From NCBI RefSeq assembly GCF_900110145.1, contig NZ_FOCP01000015.1, positions 1-64,000 of the forward strand: 64,000 nt of DNA. The letters are read 5' to 3'. Shown here one piece after another: positions 22,067 through 30,397 of this stretch (the first letter of the stretch is position 1; each line of letters opens with the position of its first letter). Made by a program: the position numbers and the translations under genes. Origin of the DNA: Nitrosomonas marina (lineage in GTDB: Bacteria > Pseudomonadota > Gammaproteobacteria > Burkholderiales > Nitrosomonadaceae). The notes beneath the pieces are model-generated. The model saw only the letters and a list, made by a program, of their open reading frames with translations, made no database searches and was not told the origin of the DNA.

Positions 22067-24814
22067 CTAATGGTTTTTCGTTTCTTCTGTTTGAATACTT
22101 TCACCTTGTTTCATCCGTTCGGATCCAGTTTTCTCAGTTGGTGAATCATCAGTTTGCCGCCACCCTTCCTGATCAGCCGTTATAGAGTGCTTTTCCTGCT
22201 CTGATGCAGCATCCCGTGTATTAGTCTCGTTATTTCCTGTTACCTGTTCAGACACCGGCGCTTCGTCCGTAAAAAGATCAGAGGCCGCAATTTCACTTAA
22301 TTGCCCGGATTCCAGGACATTGGAACGTTCGATATCAGTGGCCAACTGCTCATTCTGATCTCCAGCCACGGTAACATCGGAATGTTCCGGTTCGCTTGAT
22401 GCAAACGAGGTTGCAGTTGTTGCCGCAATTGTCGATTCTGTAGTCGTAACCGAAGATGTAGCTGGCGGCGACGATACAGTAAGGTCGACTGAACCAGGCG
22501 CTTCATAGGAAAAATCCTGCGAAAAATCGTCAACTTTGATAACCCTGCTGCGCAAATCCCGCATCTTGTGCAGCAAGTCAGCCTCAGTTACAGTTATCAC
22601 GTTTAGATGGTATGCCTGCGTAACCTGTTTTTCACTCTGCTGCGTGGTAATTTTGCCTGATTTGACAGCATTACGCACTTTTGCCTCGAGCGGTGCACTT
22701 TCAATCGCGCACTCCAGCGCCTGCTCCAGGTCAGACAATGGTTCACCCGATCTGGTTGGCAGATAAACACCCGCTGTCAGCCTGTCACGCGCTTTATTCG
22801 GCTCGAGCAACATCTGGGATATTTCATGTCCAAGCTTATCGGTTGGCGGCAAATACGGTTTTCCCAGCGGGAAAATACATTTTCTCAACAGCCATACAAA
22901 TACCTTATTACCGGGAAAATTACTCAGCAATTCGTCAAAGGCCTGCTGAACGCGGTATATGGCATCCTGAACAGACCAGTGCAGCAACGGTAAGTCGGCT
23001 TGTGGCCGACCATTGTCTTCAAAACGTTTGAGCGTTGCCGATGCAAGATACAGCAGACTGAGAATATCTCCAAGGCGCGCGGATAAACGTTCCTTTCGCT
23101 TTAAGGACCCGCCCAGCTTTATCATGGCAACATCGGCAAGAAATGCGAAATTCACGGCGAACCGGCTAAGTTGTAGAAAATATGGTGCTGTCTCCGGGCT
23201 GCAGTTTTCAGGAATATTGCTTTTAATGTACTTACCAAACAAACCATACACCGGACACTTGATTGCATTACGCATACTGAATAGAACATGGCCGACCAGA
23301 GCCGAATCGAACGCTTTGGAAGCACGTTTTTTATCTGTATCGTGCGCTGCGGTGATTTCCTGAAGTATATACGGATGACAGCGGATTGCGCCCTGTCCGA
23401 AAATTATCATGTTACGCGTCAGAATGTTGGCGCCCTCGACCGTAATACTGACAGGCATATGCTGATAAGTTCGTCCGAGGTAGTTGCGCGGTCCAATACA
23501 GATGCCTTTGCCGCCGTGTATATCCATCGCATCATTAATGGTCTGGCGTGCCCGTTCTGTCAGATGATACTTGACTATTGCGGATATCACAGACGGCTTT
23601 TCACCCAGATCGACAGCACCGGCAGTCATAATGCGCGCCGCATCCATCATATAGGTATTGCCGCCGATGCGCGCCAGCGCTTCTTCAATTCCTTCAAAAT
23701 ACCCGATAGGCAGATTGAACTGCACACGCACCCGGCTATACGCACCACTTGTTCTTGCTGCAAGTTTTGCGCTGCCGGTACTGGTGGCCGGCAATGAAAT
23801 CGAACGTCCGGCCGCCAGACAGTTCATCAGCATGCGCCATCCCTGACCGACACCATTTTGGCCGCCAATGATCCAGTCCATGGGTATAAATACATCTTTG
23901 CCCCAGTTCGGTCCGTTTTGAAATGCCGCGTCAAGCGGCAGATGACGTCGCCCGATATGCAGACCCGGTGTATCGGTCGGAATCAGTGCGAGTGTTATGC
24001 CCAGATCTTCCTGATTACCAAGCAGATGATCGGGATCATACAATTTAAATGCCAGGCCAAGAATGGTTGCTACAGGACCCAGTGTAATATAACGCTTTTC
24101 CCAGGTGACACGCATGCCCAGAACATCCTGTTTGCCGTCAAATTCTTCCCTACATACCACGGCGTAATCGGGTATGGAGCCAGCGTCCGATCCTGCATCC
24201 GGTGACGTCAGTCCAAAACAGGGAACCTCTAATCCCTGGGCCAGACGCGGTAAATAATAATTTTTTTGTTCGTCTGTACCATAATGCATCAATAATTCAG
24301 CAGGTCCTAGCGAATTGGGCACCATGACTGTTACTGCCGCCGTTCCGCTGCGCGAACCGATTTTCATCACAATCTCGGAATGTGCCAGCGCCGAAAAACC
24401 ACGTCCTCCATATTGCTTTGGGATTATTAATCCAAAAAAACCATTGTCTTTTATGAATTGCCAGACCTCTGGCGGCAGATCCTTCAGGTCATGCGTGATC
24501 TTCCATTCGTCGAGCATGTCGCAAAGCTGTTCGACAGGGCCATTGAGAAAGGCCTGTTCCTCGTCGCTTAATTGCGGTGTCGGATAAGCCAGCAGCTTAC
24601 TCCAGTCAGGTTTACCGCTGAATAGATCGCCATCCCACCATACAGTGCCGGCATCAAGCGCTTCCTGCTCGGTCTGGGAAATGGGTGGCAGCATCTTGCG
24701 AAAAATTTTCAACAATTGATTGGAAATAATCAGGCGCCTTAACCACGGAACGAATAAAACCAAGGCGACGATCACCAGCAATGATATGAAAACAAGTAAT
24801 AGCGACTCGAGCAT
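22067..24814 (-). CDS. fadE: Acyl-CoA dehydrogenase FadE, with long C-terminal extension
   Basis: 915 residues; E. coli FadE is 814. An N-terminal membrane segment (about 3-30) leads to the acyl-CoA dehydrogenase domain (PKQYGGRGFS; CFGLTSPDAGSDAGS; TVEGANILTRNMIIFGQGA) and then the FadE-specific C-terminal domain to about 770. The remaining ~140 residues are a Ser/Thr/Glu-rich low-complexity tail (SSPPATSSVTTTESTIAA...) not found in the usual enzyme. Operon with fadD. First step of beta-oxidation at the inner membrane. Confidence 0.85.
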   Translation of the reverse strand: MLESLLLVFISLLVIVALVLFVPWLRRLIISNQLLKIFRKMLPPISQTEQEALDAGTVWWDGDLFSGKPDWSKLLAYPTPQLSDEEQAFLNGPVEQLCDMLDEWKITHDLKDLPPEVWQFIKDNGFFGLIIPKQYGGRGFSALAHSEIVMKIGSRSGTAAVTVMVPNSLGPAELLMHYGTDEQKNYYLPRLAQGLEVPCFGLTSPDAGSDAGSIPDYAVVCREEFDGKQDVLGMRVTWEKRYITLGPVATILGLAFKLYDPDHLLGNQEDLGITLALIPTDTPGLHIGRRHLPLDAAFQNGPNWGKDVFIPMDWIIGGQNGVGQGWRMLMNCLAAGRSISLPATSTGSAKLAARTSGAYSRVRVQFNLPIGYFEGIEEALARIGGNTYMMDAARIMTAGAVDLGEKPSVISAIVKYHLTERARQTINDAMDIHGGKGICIGPRNYLGRTYQHMPVSITVEGANILTRNMIIFGQGAIRCHPYILQEITAAHDTDKKRASKAFDSALVGHVLFSMRNAIKCPVYGLFGKYIKSNIPENCSPETAPYFLQLSRFAVNFAFLADVAMIKLGGSLKRKERLSARLGDILSLLYLASATLKRFEDNGRPQADLPLLHWSVQDAIYRVQQAFDELLSNFPGNKVFVWLLRKCIFPLGKPYLPPTDKLGHEISQMLLEPNKARDRLTAGVYLPTRSGEPLSDLEQALECAIESAPLEAKVRNAVKSGKITTQQSEKQVTQAYHLNVITVTEADLLHKMRDLRSRVIKVDDFSQDFSYEAPGSVDLTVSSPPATSSVTTTESTIAATTATSFASSEPEHSDVTVAGDQNEQLATDIERSNVLESGQLSEIAASDLFTDEAPVSEQVTGNNETNTRDAASEQEKHSITADQEGWRQTDDSPTEKTGSERMKQGESIQTEETKNH

Positions 24815-25018
24815 CTTTTCCCCTTATGATCGAATTCAATAATTGAGTGCTTTATTGCACATCACTCAGTGCGAATTTTGTATCAGGCGTGTAGAATTCG
24901 CTTTTAGTAGCAAGCCCTAAATTTACATGATAATCATCCAAATCCATACACCCGAATAAAAGTTTTGAACTGAAAGTGTTGTTAAATACATACACTGCAA
25001 GTGCGCGTAGTGATTTGA

Positions 25019-26219: not shown

Positions 26220-26312
26220 TTATACTGAAAGTAATGTAAGGGCTGTCAGATATTTTCCAGCCACTGCAGCAATACACAAGGCGACAACAATGTTTTTAAT
26301 TTCAGTTTTCAT
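26220..26312 (-). CDS. Possible 30-residue membrane peptide
   Basis: MKTEIKNIVVALCIAAVAGK then YLTALTLLSV: one hydrophobic segment, with TTGGAG 9 bases before the ATG. It is short, so chance is possible. On the minus strand it follows a hairpin terminator (26346-26389) and a promoter with paired sites (26452-26519), so expression would need read-through of that hairpin. Converges with dapE. Confidence 0.35.
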   Translation of the reverse strand: MKTEIKNIVVALCIAAVAGKYLTALTLLSV

Positions 26313-26345: not shown

Positions 26346-26458
26346 CTACAAAAAAAGTAAGCCGTCGAAAATGGCTGGAAACGGCTTACATATAGAAAAA
26401 GAGAAGTAATGTAATAAAAAACAAAATCGTCATTCATGGATTACGTTAAACATACTAA
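26346..26458 (-). ncRNA. Candidate small RNA or attenuated leader
   Basis: Minus-strand stretch from just after the TAGTAT -10 box (26452-26457) to a terminator: GTAAGCCGT (complement of 26381-26389) pairs with ACGGCTTAC (26357-26365) and a T-run follows. The transcript would be near 90-100 bases. No reading frame of note lies within it. It could be a free small RNA or a leader with an attenuator before the 26220-26312 peptide. Confidence 0.4.
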
Positions 26459-26519
26459 TTCTTTTTTTTTAACAAACCTATTGGGGAAACTATTGTTTTC
26501 ATATCAGGGAAACCATTAG
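26452..26519 (-). promoter_or_regulatory. Promoter with paired sites, copy A
   Basis: On the plus strand: GGGGAAACTATTG (26483-26495) and GGGAAACCATTAG (26507-26519), 23 bp apart by their common C. On the minus strand the inner site ends exactly 25 bp before TAGTAT (26452-26457). The same layout recurs at 27155-27222. The sites probably bind a regulator, perhaps the response regulator encoded next door. Confidence 0.6.
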
Positions 26520-26597
26520 ATTAGATTTTTCTGAACGACTGGTGTTTCGGGTCTGCAGGCATACCGGATTTCAGTGTAAAGCGGATTGTAATGCATT

Positions 26598-26639
26598 AAA
26601 AACCCGACCAGTCTGGCAATACAGCCTGGTCGGGTTTTT
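26598..26639. terminator. Strong bidirectional terminator
   Basis: AAAAACCCGACCAG (26598-26611) pairs with CTGGTCGGGTTTTT (26626-26639), 14-bp stem with A and T runs on both sides. It ends transcription of the minus-strand lipoprotein gene at 26672. Confidence 0.8.
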
Positions 26640-26671
26640 AGTGTTGCTTGATGAAGACGGGTTACTGAATA

Positions 26672-27121
26672 CTACAAGGCGTCATGAAAATCATCTGCCG
26701 TTGGCGGCGCGCCTTTCTCCTGTCTGAATCTCGCTTTATCAATCTGTTCGGTAGCGCCCGGCTTGCTGTATCTATCACGATTTGCCTGCTCCTGAGCGAT
26801 TTTCTTATGATAAGCGGCCTTGGCAAAGTTTAGCTCAGCTTCTTTTTCATATTTATTAATCCGCCAAATAACGCGATTTTTTGAAAGCTGCGCATTCCTG
26901 CCGAATTTACGAACCCGGGATCTCTTTTTTACTATTTGTTTCTGTTCTTCAGCCTTGGATTGCATTGTTCTGGCCAGATTCTCATGATATTTCGTCAGTG
27001 CGGCATGATTAACGTTTTCCATACCTTTATTTACTGACGTTTGCGGAGTCATCGGCGCACAAGCGGCAGCCAGAATACAAATTGTAAAAACTGCCAGGTA
27101 TTTAACTGTTATGGTTTTCAT
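26672..27121 (-). CDS. Lipoprotein of unknown function
   Basis: 149 residues. Signal peptide with lipobox LAAAC (Cys21), so attached to a membrane on the periplasmic side. The mature part is basic and helical with many Lys, Arg, Glu and Gln (LARTMQSKAEEQKQIVKKRSRVRKF; YEKEAELNFAKAAYHKKIAQEQANRDRYS). No family recognised. Its promoter (TAATAT at 27155-27160) carries the paired-site arrangement also seen at 26452-26519. Likely under the adjacent two-component system. Confidence 0.7.
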   Translation of the reverse strand: MKTITVKYLAVFTICILAAACAPMTPQTSVNKGMENVNHAALTKYHENLARTMQSKAEEQKQIVKKRSRVRKFGRNAQLSKNRVIWRINKYEKEAELNFAKAAYHKKIAQEQANRDRYSKPGATEQIDKARFRQEKGAPPTADDFHDAL

Positions 27122-27154
27122 TAATAATTCCCCAACGCATTCAAGACAGGTACC

Positions 27155-27222
27155 ATATTAGCCAAGTCAGCGCAGTTTTAATATTGGGAAAACTATTGTT
27201 TTTTGGTAAGCGAAACCATTAG
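27155..27222 (-). promoter_or_regulatory. Promoter with paired sites, copy B
   Basis: GGGAAAACTATTG (27186-27198) and GCGAAACCATTAG (27210-27222), again 23 bp apart, with exactly 25 bp from the inner site to TAATAT (27155-27160, minus strand). It sits upstream of the lipoprotein gene and directly after the response-regulator gene. Confidence 0.65.
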
Positions 27223-27266: not shown

Positions 27267-27926
27267 TCATTGCTTCTCTTCCGAGATCCAGCGAGTGGCT
27301 AACCGAATCAGATCAGCGCTATCTTTCAGTTTCAATTTGGTACGTATGTTAAAGCGATGGGTTTCAATCGTTTTAATACTGCGCTTCAGCAAGTTGGCGA
27401 TTTCCTGGCTGCTGTGCCCGGCACCAATCAGATGCAGTACTTCAAACTCGCTGGGAGTGAGTTTATTGATCGGAGATTCCGGCTCGGCCTGGCCCGCTAC
27501 AATCCGGTTGAGCAGTTTTTCGTGCAATTTTCCGCTCAAATAAATTTTGCCCTGCAGAACTTCCCGTATGGCATTGATCAATACCTCTCCAGGTTCCTGT
27601 TTCATAACATAGCCGCGTGCACCTGCACGCAGGGCGCGTTCGGCATAAATTGTTTCATCGTGCATGGAAACAAAAAGCACAGGCAGATCGGGATAATGGC
27701 TATGGATATTTTTTATGACCTCTAATCCCGAGATGGTTTTGAGCGTTACATCCAGCAATACTATATCAATTTGTTTATTTTTTCTGAGAATCGCCAATGC
27801 CTCTTCGCCATCCCCGGCTTGTGCAAACACCTCAAGATCAGGTTCCATATTGATGAGCATGGCCATCCCGTGACGCATCATTGGGTGATCATCAACGAGT
27901 AGAATTTGTGCAATTGAATCCGGCAT
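27267..27926 (-). CDS. NarL/LuxR-family response regulator
   Basis: 219 residues. The receiver domain (1-120) has the acidic pair in LLVDDHP, the phospho-acceptor Asp59 (VLLDVTL) and a Lys in YVMKQEPGE. The C-terminal LuxR-type helix-turn-helix is LTPSEFEVLHLIGAGHSSQEIANLLKRSIKTIETHR. It lies 2 bp behind the sensor kinase gene, so the two are a pair. The repeated sites at 26483-26519 and 27186-27222 are candidates for its binding sites. Confidence 0.9.
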   Translation of the reverse strand: MPDSIAQILLVDDHPMMRHGMAMLINMEPDLEVFAQAGDGEEALAILRKNKQIDIVLLDVTLKTISGLEVIKNIHSHYPDLPVLFVSMHDETIYAERALRAGARGYVMKQEPGEVLINAIREVLQGKIYLSGKLHEKLLNRIVAGQAEPESPINKLTPSEFEVLHLIGAGHSSQEIANLLKRSIKTIETHRFNIRTKLKLKDSADLIRLATRWISEEKQ

Positions 27927-27928
27927 TT

Positions 27929-30397
27929 TTAAACCATCCCCATTTCGAGACGTACTTCGGTGCCACCCTCCACACCTGACAGAAACTTGAGTTTGGCGCC
28001 CAATTGTTTGGCACGATACTGCATGATTTTAATACCCATTCCAGATGTCCCCGGGTCATTTGTATTCAGAGAAAAACCACAGCCGTCATCAAGAATAGAT
28101 AAGATCAGTTTATCATTTTTCGCAACAAGAGATATTGTCAAATGCTGGGCTTCGCCGTGACGAATAGCGTTATTTGCCGCTTCCTGGGCGATTCTGTAAA
28201 AATTCAGCGCCAGGTTTTTATCGTTGATTCGTATTGTATGCTCACAAACAAAGTCACATTTGATTGAATAGGTTTTGGCAATTCTTGTCGCGAGTTTCTC
28301 AAGCGCTGCGACTACGCCGTTTGCTTCCAGTTCAAATGGCAGTAACCCCTGGGCCAATTGCTTTATCTGCACGACAGCAGTTTGCACCTGCGTTGCTATT
28401 GAAGCGGCGATGGCTGCCATCGATTCATTACCCAGGGAGGTGATTTTTTTCTCCAGCGCCCTGGCTTGATATCCGATAGCCGCAATTTGCTGGCCAAGGT
28501 TGTCGTGCAGTTCCTGCCCGATGGTATGCGCCTGTTCCTCTGCAACAAATACCAGCGTTTGTTCCAGACGTTTGCGGTCAAGCCAGCTCTCCAGATCACT
28601 GGCTATCGCATCCAAGAGTTTTTGTTCCTCCTGGATGAGAAATGGCTTGTCTTCCGGATATGTTACTTTGATATAGCCGTACTTCTTGCCACCGAGGTTG
28701 ATATCCGATTGTAAAACATGACCTATGGAGTCACGGGAATGGTAACAGTCATTACATACACGTTCGCTATTGGCTCTGGAAAACATCAGTTTCCCATCAC
28801 GCACATCGTATTTTCCGGATTCAAAATGCCTGCCGTCAATTTCAATGACAGCTGTGGCAATTTCTGGAAACTGCATTGCAGGTATCAAATAATCGAAAAT
28901 ATTCCGGCAGATTTTATCCACTGATAGTTCTGTACTGATACCTCGCCGTATTTCGTAGAGGCAAGTGATTTCTTTCAATCGCTCACGCAACAGCTCATCG
29001 ACCTGCTTTCGTTCAAGCCAGTTTGCCAGATCGACTGTAATGGTATCTATGAGTTTTTGTTCTTCAATTTCAAGGAAAGGCCTGTCCTCGGAATAAAAAA
29101 CACTGAGTTGACCACATACTTTTCCATTGACTTTGATATTGGAAACCAGAGCATTACTGTGTGCTTGATTGCTGGCAGCTGAAACGAAACGGTTTCCGTC
29201 GATCTCAATCGAAGCCGAGGCTGACTCCGGATATTGCATGGCAGGAATCAGATGTTTGAAAATCTGCTGGCATACCTCTTCAACCGATAATTCCGTTCCG
29301 ATGCTGCGCCGAATCTCATACAGGCAAGTAATTTCTTTCAAACGTTCACGAAGCTCAAGTTCTTTCAAACTCAATTCAAATGAAAACTGCTCGGCTTTAT
29401 CTTTCGCCAGTTTTGCGCTTTGTTCCGAATTGATCAATTTTCGAATAAACCAGTTCAGCAACAGCACCTCGGCGATGATCAGAATGCCGAGATAAACCAT
29501 AATAATTTTGAGTTCTTCAGTTACAGGCTTGAACAGTTCCGCTTCATCCAGTTTAAGAATCATACCCAGACCAATAGCTTCTAAAGGTGCGTAAGCCTCA
29601 ATAACCGGCACATTCCGATAATCGATAACTGCAATAACGCCACTTCGACCATCGAGCGCGTAATCCATCGGTAACACGCCTCCTTCAACCACCCGTGTCA
29701 GAGTCTTAAAGCGTACGCCATCAATCTGGCTAATCAGACAAGGCATTTTCTGATCACTTACAGAGGTAGGGGCGCATAACATGAATGTGCCGGTTTCGTC
29801 GATCGACCTGATTTCACTGAAACTGCGTGTCAACTGCGGCAAGGTTGTTTCCGTCATGATACTGCCGATATGCTGACCGTCTGGACCGAACACTGCTTCA
29901 CGCGTGTGCAGAACAAACTCGCCGTCCCATATTAATGTGGTTTCATTCTTCTCGCCAAGAGGTAATGCCTGTGCGTGTTTTTCTGAAAAATGCCCGGCTC
30001 TTACCAGCTGATTGCCTTGCGCATCGTAAACAACTGCCGCTGTAAAACCGGATTGAATCAATGAATGGATATTGTTTTCCAGATCACTGCGTGCTGCTTG
30101 ATTTTCGTTCTGGTCACGCAGTTGCCGTATCGATTGAATCAAGAAAGGACGCGTAGCCAATGCACGCGTGTCAGCCAGGCCCTTTTCTATCTGGCTCTCG
30201 AGCAAATGCGCTTTGCCCTGCAATGCCACATCGAGTCCTCTGCCAAGCGATGATTCAATTTGCTGACGCATCACGCTGTATACAGCAACACCCGTAACCA
30301 GGGTGAGGCCCATCAAAAGCAAACCGCCAATCAACACAATTTTATCGTTCTTCTGGATTGAAATTGCGTGACTGTTATTATTATTGGATTTTTCCAT
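27929..30397 (-). CDS. Sensor histidine kinase with sensory and two GAF domains
   Basis: 822 residues. Two membrane helices (about 23-42 and 296-315) enclose a periplasmic Cache-like sensor. Then two similar GAF domains follow, each opening with RERLKEITCLYEIRR (about 352-460 and 470-600). The second contains an extra CNDCYHSRDS motif that could bind metal or a redox group. The kinase part is of the HisKA_3 type (ELHDNLGQQIAAIG) plus an HATPase (DDGCGFSLNTNDPGTSGMG). Cognate to the regulator at 27267. Confidence 0.88.
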   Translation of the reverse strand: MEKSNNNNSHAISIQKNDKIVLIGGLLLMGLTLVTGVAVYSVMRQQIESSLGRGLDVALQGKAHLLESQIEKGLADTRALATRPFLIQSIRQLRDQNENQAARSDLENNIHSLIQSGFTAAVVYDAQGNQLVRAGHFSEKHAQALPLGEKNETTLIWDGEFVLHTREAVFGPDGQHIGSIMTETTLPQLTRSFSEIRSIDETGTFMLCAPTSVSDQKMPCLISQIDGVRFKTLTRVVEGGVLPMDYALDGRSGVIAVIDYRNVPVIEAYAPLEAIGLGMILKLDEAELFKPVTEELKIIMVYLGILIIAEVLLLNWFIRKLINSEQSAKLAKDKAEQFSFELSLKELELRERLKEITCLYEIRRSIGTELSVEEVCQQIFKHLIPAMQYPESASASIEIDGNRFVSAASNQAHSNALVSNIKVNGKVCGQLSVFYSEDRPFLEIEEQKLIDTITVDLANWLERKQVDELLRERLKEITCLYEIRRGISTELSVDKICRNIFDYLIPAMQFPEIATAVIEIDGRHFESGKYDVRDGKLMFSRANSERVCNDCYHSRDSIGHVLQSDINLGGKKYGYIKVTYPEDKPFLIQEEQKLLDAIASDLESWLDRKRLEQTLVFVAEEQAHTIGQELHDNLGQQIAAIGYQARALEKKITSLGNESMAAIAASIATQVQTAVVQIKQLAQGLLPFELEANGVVAALEKLATRIAKTYSIKCDFVCEHTIRINDKNLALNFYRIAQEAANNAIRHGEAQHLTISLVAKNDKLILSILDDGCGFSLNTNDPGTSGMGIKIMQYRAKQLGAKLKFLSGVEGGTEVRLEMGMV

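What the first reader, a model, noticed from the sequence alone, without database searches (positions are those of the whole stretch)
26346..27222. Two promoters with the same paired-site layout; one appears to drive a small RNA
Sites GGG(G/A)AAACTATTG and G(G/C)GAAACCATTAG occur twice, 23 bp apart both times, and both times exactly 25 bp from a TA(A/G)TAT -10 box on the minus strand. One promoter serves a lipoprotein gene. The other leads to a short transcript ending in a clean terminator (26346-26389), then a 30-residue membrane peptide. A LuxR-type regulator and its kinase are encoded next door. This looks like a compact signalling unit with a small RNA output.
Basis: partly seen in the sequence, partly recalled or inferred. 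Interest (0 to 1): 0.7.

Follow-up and report, generated by a model that had tools for sequence, protein, structure and literature searches.

The report
Nitrosomonas envelope regulon with small RNA
Two matching promoters in this ammonia-oxidising bacterium belong to an apparently undescribed set of genes, widespread in Nitrosomonas, that one signalling protein probably switches on together; one of the two promoters appears to make a short conserved RNA just ahead of a tiny membrane peptide.

Summary
The layout is real and far beyond chance. The window is from a Nitrosomonas. The two operators (23-bp direct repeat, -10 box 60 bases from the operator start) are copies of one activator-type promoter. 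A profile built without this genome finds it 10 times here and in 62 of 85 Nitrosomonas genomes at E<=1e-4. In 94 curated loci, 91 have TANNNT at offset 60 or 61. It tracks the neighbouring NarL/LuxR-type regulator: 61 of 68 genomes with the regulator have it, 1 of 17 without. Targets are mainly exported helical-hairpin proteins (6 of 6 paralogues here), plus porins, a PII-like protein and membrane peptides. Binding by the regulator is inferred, not shown.

The small RNA is plausible but local: leader and terminator occur in 3 of 85 genomes, yet are better conserved than neighbouring genes in the most distant one (88% versus 73-79%) with no conserved reading frame. Another relative has the promoter and a similar 30-aa peptide without the terminator. 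The core is a widespread envelope regulon; the RNA is a lineage-specific addition. My seven library searches found no paper describing it.

The parts
27929..30397 (-). Sensor histidine kinase, 822 aa (HisKA_3 + HATPase_c)
   Evidence: Pfam HATPase_c 39.4 bits and HisKA_3 32.2 bits, both above cut-off; NCBIfam matches to NarQ/UhpB/MctS/NarX far below cut-off
27267..27926 (-). NarL/FixJ (LuxR-HTH) response regulator, 219 aa, candidate activator
   Evidence: Response_reg 95.8 and GerE 47.4 bits, above cut-off; co-occurrence with the promoter over 85 genomes
27187..27221 (-). Tandem operator of the lipoprotein promoter (two sites 23 bp apart)
   Evidence: 0 mismatches to the paired pattern; profile R1, built without this genome, E 4.8e-16
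27155..27160 (-). -10 box TAATAT; predicted transcription start near 27148
   Evidence: offset 60 from operator start, as in 54 of 94 loci (60) and 37 of 94 (61)
26672..27121 (-). Lipoprotein, 149 aa, member of an expanded helical-hairpin family
   Evidence: 6 paralogues in this genome, matches in 70 of 85 congeners; no Pfam/NCBIfam family above cut-off; AlphaFold2 helical hairpin 39-68/75-119
26598..26640 (-). Terminator of the lipoprotein gene
   Evidence: folded 60 nt around it: -29.3 kcal/mol
26484..26518 (-). Tandem operator of the leader-RNA / 30-aa peptide promoter
   Evidence: 0 mismatches to the paired pattern; R1 E 1.5e-13
26452..26457 (-). -10 box TAGTAT; predicted transcription start near 26445
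   Evidence: offset 60
26350..26446 (-). Predicted leader RNA / small RNA of about 95-100 nt
   Evidence: homologues in 3 of 85 genomes; 97% and 88% identical in the other two versus 91-93% and 73-79% for genes; MFE z -3.05
26350..26389 (-). Intrinsic terminator: stem-loop 26357-26389, U7 at 26350-26356
   Evidence: -13.6 kcal/mol, z -3.45; similar fold energy in the three species
26220..26312 (-). 30-aa hydrophobic peptide ORF (MKTEIKNIVVALCIAAVAGKYLTALTLLSV)
   Evidence: 30-aa homologue with AGKYxxALxxL behind the same promoter type in G006 and in N. marina Nm71; truncated by frameshift in the Nm51-like genome

Best explanation
The two promoters belong to a Nitrosomonas regulon. The kinase (27929-30397) most likely phosphorylates the NarL/FixJ-type regulator (27267-27926); two regulator dimers then bind the tandem sites, centred near -66 and -43, and recruit sigma-70 RNA polymerase to promoters with a fixed -10 box and no good -35 box. 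The regulon makes many exported or lipoprotein helical hairpins, porins, a PII-like protein and membrane micropeptides. In the lineage of this window (also N. marina Nm71 and a genome that appears to be Nitrosomonas sp. Nm51) the unit of the 30-aa peptide carries a conserved leader RNA of about 95-100 nt ending in an intrinsic terminator: most transcripts would stop there as a small RNA and the read-through fraction would yield the peptide. Shown here by sequence: the shared promoter, its spread, its association with regulator and targets, conservation of the RNA. Inferred: phosphorylation, binding, activation, termination efficiency and any target of the RNA. The signal is unknown.
For: Paired pattern 9 vs 0 and 104 vs 12 against the reversed control; 41 of 48 exact stretches among 84,980 species are Nitrosomonas/Nitrosomonadaceae/AOB; -10 at offset 60/61 in 91 of 94 loci; profile without this genome finds 10 promoters here and hits in 62 of 85 genomes, including one upstream of each of the 6 helical-family paralogues of this genome; regulator+/promoter+ 61, +/- 7, -/+ 1, -/- 16; promoter within 1.5 kb of the regulator in 8 of 17 orthologue loci, about 1% expected per locus; leader RNA conservation and terminator fold.
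Against: No binding, expression or phosphorylation data. Co-occurrence is not corrected for phylogeny; restricted to the 70 genomes with helical-family genes it is weaker (60/6/1/3, p 0.006). G054 has the promoter without the regulator and 7 regulator-positive genomes have no hit at E<=1e-4, though that search used stricter filters. Some regulator-positive genomes (e.g. G018, 8 helical genes) carry few promoters. Of 92 helical-family places used, 43 have no operator at <=3 mismatches. Against Nm71 alone the leader is not significantly better conserved than the kinase gene (p 0.14). In the Nm51-like genome the second promoter is not found by the profile and the peptide ORF is frameshifted, so the RNA module may be decaying there.
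Confidence: 0.72

Rival explanations
1. The regulon is real, but another transcription factor, not the neighbouring response regulator, binds the operator; the regulator is merely a neighbour or itself a target.
For: Only association links the two; the promoter is within 1.5 kb of the regulator in 8 of 17 loci, not in all; G054 and seven other genomes break the pattern.
Against: 61/7/1/16 co-occurrence over 85 genomes; 3 of 4 genomes with helical-family genes but no regulator lack the promoter; tandem imperfect dyads at about -43 and -66 fit a NarL/FixJ-type activator (inference).
Confidence: 0.2
2. The terminator is only an attenuator or leftover in the 5' leader of the 30-aa peptide gene; no small RNA acts on its own.
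For: Terminator and peptide lie in one transcription unit; G006 has promoter and peptide without a terminator; the RNA is in 3 of 85 genomes only.
Against: The leader is more conserved than neighbouring genes (88% versus 73-79%; p 0.002 to 0.03) while the peptide ORF is frameshifted in the same genome; the Phe/Tyr-rich leader frame is not conserved.
Confidence: 0.35
3. The repeated layout is a chance resemblance or a recent duplication.
For: The two promoters lie 703 bp apart; a single site is only mildly above chance.
Against: 9 vs 0 and 104 vs 12 against the reversed pattern; 68 non-redundant copies; 62 of 85 genomes.
Confidence: 0.01

Closest known systems
NarL/FixJ-family two-component activators (NarL, FixJ, UhpA, MctR)
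   Same: Receiver plus LuxR-type HTH, partner kinase with HisKA_3 and HATPase_c; dyad sites in tandem upstream of a -10 box.
   Different: Best NCBIfam match MctR at 154.5 bits against a cut-off of 300, NarL 130.8 against 250, so not a member of those named groups; the operator TAATRG-TTT-CCCTTA with 23-bp period does not resemble the NarL, FixJ or DosR motifs that I recall.
Terminated leader RNAs and mRNA-derived small RNAs
   Same: Short transcript from its own promoter ending in an intrinsic terminator just ahead of an ORF.
   Different: No Rfam family at E<=5 on either strand here, apart from one sub-threshold eukaryotic snoRNA match at 24801-24902; no target known.
Type I toxin-antitoxin pairs (TisB/IstR, ShoB/OhsC; recalled)
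   Same: Small hydrophobic peptide next to a short RNA; terminator loop can pair with the ORF.
   Different: Same strand and same transcription unit; pairing is short and its word is common in these genomes; toxicity not testable here.
Helical-hairpin periplasmic proteins (Spy/CpxP/CnrX-like; recalled)
   Same: Small exported two-helix hairpin; invariant His39 and His105 would fit ligand or metal binding (inference).
   Different: No Pfam or NCBIfam family above cut-off; 0 PDB matches at E<=0.001 among 128 up to E 10.

Membership tests
NarL/FixJ-type two-component system | Receiver domain plus LuxR-type HTH in the regulator | tested here: met
   Response_reg and GerE above cut-off
NarL/FixJ-type two-component system | Partner kinase with HisKA_3 and HATPase_c encoded beside it | tested here: met
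NarL/FixJ-type two-component system | Regulator binds the operators | not testable with these tools
   only co-occurrence and neighbourhood
Named NCBIfam groups (MctR, NarL, UhpA, FixJ) | Score above the curated cut-off | tested here: not met
   MctR 154.5/300, NarL 130.8/250, UhpA 104.1/258, FixJ 77/255 bits
Trans-acting bacterial small RNA | Own promoter and intrinsic terminator | tested here: met
   predicted only: R1 E 1.5e-13, terminator z -3.45
Trans-acting bacterial small RNA | Sequence conserved without coding potential | tested here: met
   three species; frame broken in the Nm51-like genome
Trans-acting bacterial small RNA | Detectable transcript and a regulated target | not testable with these tools
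   no expression data; loop complements gave no clear target
Type I toxin-antitoxin | RNA complementary to the mRNA of a small hydrophobic peptide | tested here: inconclusive
   10-11 contiguous pairs; 2-14 of 2000 ORF shuffles and 42-73 of 2000 synonymous recodings as good, but the word is over-represented
Type I toxin-antitoxin | Peptide is toxic when the RNA is absent | not testable with these tools
   none

The most novel reading that the evidence does not exclude
One two-component regulator drives a Nitrosomonas-specific envelope regulon whose outputs are an expanded family of exported helical-hairpin proteins with invariant histidines and several membrane micropeptides; in one lineage a promoter of that regulon has acquired a dual-function transcript, a terminated small RNA whose terminator loop is antisense to the micropeptide gene it precedes, so that the RNA limits its own read-through product.
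Probability: 0.1. Interest if true: 0.75.

Novelty: new member of a known kind. Interest (0 to 1): 0.55.

Why it matters
Ammonia-oxidising bacteria carry out the first step of nitrification, yet my searches of the open library found no two-component regulon of this kind described in them. The operator, its layout and its targets give a ready hypothesis for a regulon present in most of the Nitrosomonas genomes searched, tie together a large family of exported proteins that no Pfam or NCBIfam model covers, and point to micropeptides and a small RNA that are easily missed in annotation. Each prediction can be tested by one footprint, one knock-out transcriptome or one northern blot.

Tried and rejected
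Leader-peptide attenuation: the Phe/Tyr-rich 35-aa leader ORF has no Shine-Dalgarno that I can see and its frame is broken in the Nm51-like genome; rejected. Known RNA family: none on this stretch. A protein search with the 30-aa peptide found only the window's own copy in 41 genomes at E<=10; that is insensitivity of a 30-residue query, since the G006 homologue was found by position. Trans targets of the terminator loop: complements with <=1 mismatch give scattered places, no clear target (places were not inspected one by one). Fold search with the lipoprotein model: nothing significant. The C23 promoter of this genome has no convincing ORF behind it. The promoter of G008:C147 / G016:C16 leads only to a short ORF that looks like a remnant.

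Counting choices. One search used 78 of the 108 places; I dropped 30 that looked scattered, among them a recurrent word that I take, from recall, for gapA coding sequence. Of the 78, 50 lie within 700 bp upstream of a helical-family gene on the same strand and 28 do not; of 92 family places used (of 93 listed), 43 have no operator at <=3 mismatches. In one search I left out by hand the 7 non-Nitrosomonas loci, L007 and L088, and did not use L010-L087; identical copies were counted once. Alignment A1 took 56 of 65 non-redundant promoters with a -10 box: the 8 of this genome were left out on purpose, and one copy shifted by a repeat. Requiring a -10 makes those columns of A1 invariant by construction; the 91 of 94 count precedes that choice.

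Full report
What is there. Each holds two AATRGTTT words 23 bases apart. The hexamers TAGTAT (26452-26457) and TAATAT (27155-27160) start 60 bases from the operator start in both. Downstream are a 149-aa lipoprotein gene (26672-27121) and, from the other promoter, a leader with a terminator followed by a 30-aa hydrophobic ORF (26220-26312). The lipoprotein unit has its own strong terminator at 26598-26640, so the second promoter starts a separate unit.

Beyond chance. A single site is only mildly above chance (15 matches, 9.05 expected, 4 of 100 shuffles as many). The paired pattern is not: 9 places in this 3.5-Mb genome at up to 3 mismatches and 0 for the reversed pattern; 104 against 12 in the genome and 24 congeners, and 4 hits (0 control) in 16 genomes of other genera of the order. 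A scan of genomes of 84,980 species for the paired pattern gives 48 stretches; 41 are titled Nitrosomonas, Nitrosomonadaceae or AOB, the other 7 are scattered taxa; by hand I would expect about 2 by chance at even base composition. The host is therefore taken to be a Nitrosomonas.

The promoter. I collected 94 loci (selection told under Tried and rejected). In 91 a TANNNT word starts at offset 60 (54 loci) or 61 (37 loci); no other offset from 36 to 84 exceeds 19. The 68 non-redundant copies give roughly TAATRGTTTCCCTTAG-NN-AAAAACAATRGTTTCCCYAATATAC, then about 17 bases, then a -10 box like TARNAT. The first site is an imperfect dyad (TAATRG-TTT-CCCTTA; some copies read TAATGG-TTT-CCATTA). If the -10 starts at -12, the site centres are near -66 and -43, and I see no good -35 box: the geometry of an activator that binds as tandem dimers and touches polymerase (inference). 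A further repeat in the same 23-bp step occurs at some loci, e.g. L174.

The regulon. A sequence profile from 56 promoters of other genomes (R1) finds 10 promoters in this genome at E<=1e-4 and has hits in 62 of 85 Nitrosomonas genomes. Each of the 6 helical-family paralogues found in this genome has one upstream. The family has 1 to 13 matches in 70 of 85 genomes and no Pfam or NCBIfam model above cut-off. The window member is modelled as a helical hairpin, residues 39-68 and 75-119, with pLDDT 81-99 by ten-residue block from residue 41 to 120 (mean 73.8 overall, pTM 0.53), and has no significant PDB match. His39 and His105 are invariant in 23 sequences. Other genes behind such promoters, seen in different genomes: a BBP2 porin (PF07642), a PII-like protein (PF00543), a SulP-type transporter (PF00916), an HDOD protein (PF08668), a globin match below cut-off, and in this genome a 491-aa porin-like protein (ExtI-like, below cut-off, behind a partial operator match) ahead of what looks by eye like a urease cluster. 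Membrane-type peptides of 39-60 aa follow the promoter in four genomes: G000, G006, G007 and G010 (judged by eye).

The regulator. In 85 Nitrosomonas genomes the regulator clade (E<=1e-75) is in 68 and the promoter (E<=1e-4) in 62: both 61, regulator only 7, promoter only 1, neither 16. Fisher gives 5e-11, and 2e-9 in the 70 genomes of better quality, but related genomes are not independent; within the 70 genomes that hold the helical family it is 60/6/1/3, p 0.006. Of 4 genomes with helical-family genes and no regulator, 3 have no promoter. The promoter lies within 1.5 kb of the regulator in 8 of 17 orthologue loci, against about 1% expected per locus. This makes the neighbouring regulator the best candidate; binding is not shown. 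Exceptions are G054 (promoter, no regulator) and seven regulator-positive genomes without hits; G018 has the regulator and 8 helical genes but few promoter hits.

The small RNA. The predicted leader of about 95-100 nt folds with an upstream hairpin, a single-stranded CU-rich stretch and a 10-bp terminator with U7 (MFE z -3.05 for the whole, -3.45 for the terminator). Clear homologues are in 3 of 85 genomes: this one, G049 (N. marina Nm71, also held as L132) and G090 (appears to be Nm51). Against Nm71 it is 97% identical while genes are 91-93%; against the Nm51-like genome it is 88% (terminator 95%) while lipoprotein, dapE and fadE are 73%, 79% and 78%. The excess over these genes in the Nm51-like genome has p 0.002, 0.03 and 0.02, and over the peptide ORF p 0.11. 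Against Nm71 alone it is not significant over the kinase gene (p 0.14) though it is over the nearby intergenic DNA (p 8e-6). The leader reading frame is broken in the Nm51-like genome. This is the pattern of a conserved RNA, but on three species. In the Nm51-like genome the operator and -10 layout of this promoter are lost by a deletion and the profile no longer finds it, and the peptide ORF is frameshifted near its end, so the module may be decaying or differently expressed there. In G006 the same promoter type leads to a 30-aa peptide with the same AGKYxxALxxL motif and no such terminator. Peptide and promoter are thus the more widely shared pair; the RNA looks like an addition.

A lead, not a result. 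The terminator loop UUUCCAGCCAUU can pair with the AVAGK codons of the peptide gene in the three species (10 or 11 contiguous pairs in the computed duplexes). Shuffled ORFs reach that energy in 8, 2 and 14 of 2000, synonymous recodings in 42, 47 and 73 of 2000. The word is over-represented in these genomes (19 places versus 1 in the reversed control in this genome), which weakens the lead.

What is known. Seven searches of the open library (listings only) showed no paper on such a regulon or on this RNA in Nitrosomonas. I read passages and section 19 of PMC5960693, which reports abundant uncharacterised proteins in three ammonia oxidisers but by accessions I could not map, and passages of PMC8510549, which predicts CRP/FNR-family, not two-component, regulons in Nitrosomonas. 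Most subscription papers are not covered.

Verdict. Observation confirmed; interpretation partly supported. A new regulon of a known kind, with a plausible lineage-specific small RNA.

Noticed in passing
window 27929-30397 (kinase); L132, L108, L125: The kinase holds a C-x2-C-Y motif followed by a conserved D and LQS in a GAF-like region; the pattern was found in the window and 3 of the 11 loci examined, some of which hold only part of the kinase. It could be a redox, metal or gas-sensing site.
   Followed up: partly
G000:C48:164449-170340 (L207): Two further regulator paralogues (68% and 70% identical) lie in tandem near a urease-like cluster, an ABC transporter and a porin-like gene with a partial operator; G002:C13 (L208) has the same arrangement.
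   Followed up: partly
L174 3647-3745; L148 4647-4749; G007:C57:19901-19957: At some loci a third repeat continues in the same 23-bp step, suggesting longer arrays of regulator dimers.
   Followed up: no
L217 8714-9212; L218 3943-4568; L220 308-1001: PII-like and globin genes of the regulon have long leaders of about 170-270 nt after the operator, which may hold structured RNA.
   Followed up: no
L223 2380-2653; L226 2319-2592: A conserved regulon promoter in G008 and G016 leads to no intact gene, only a roughly 20-codon ORF that looks like a remnant.
   Followed up: partly
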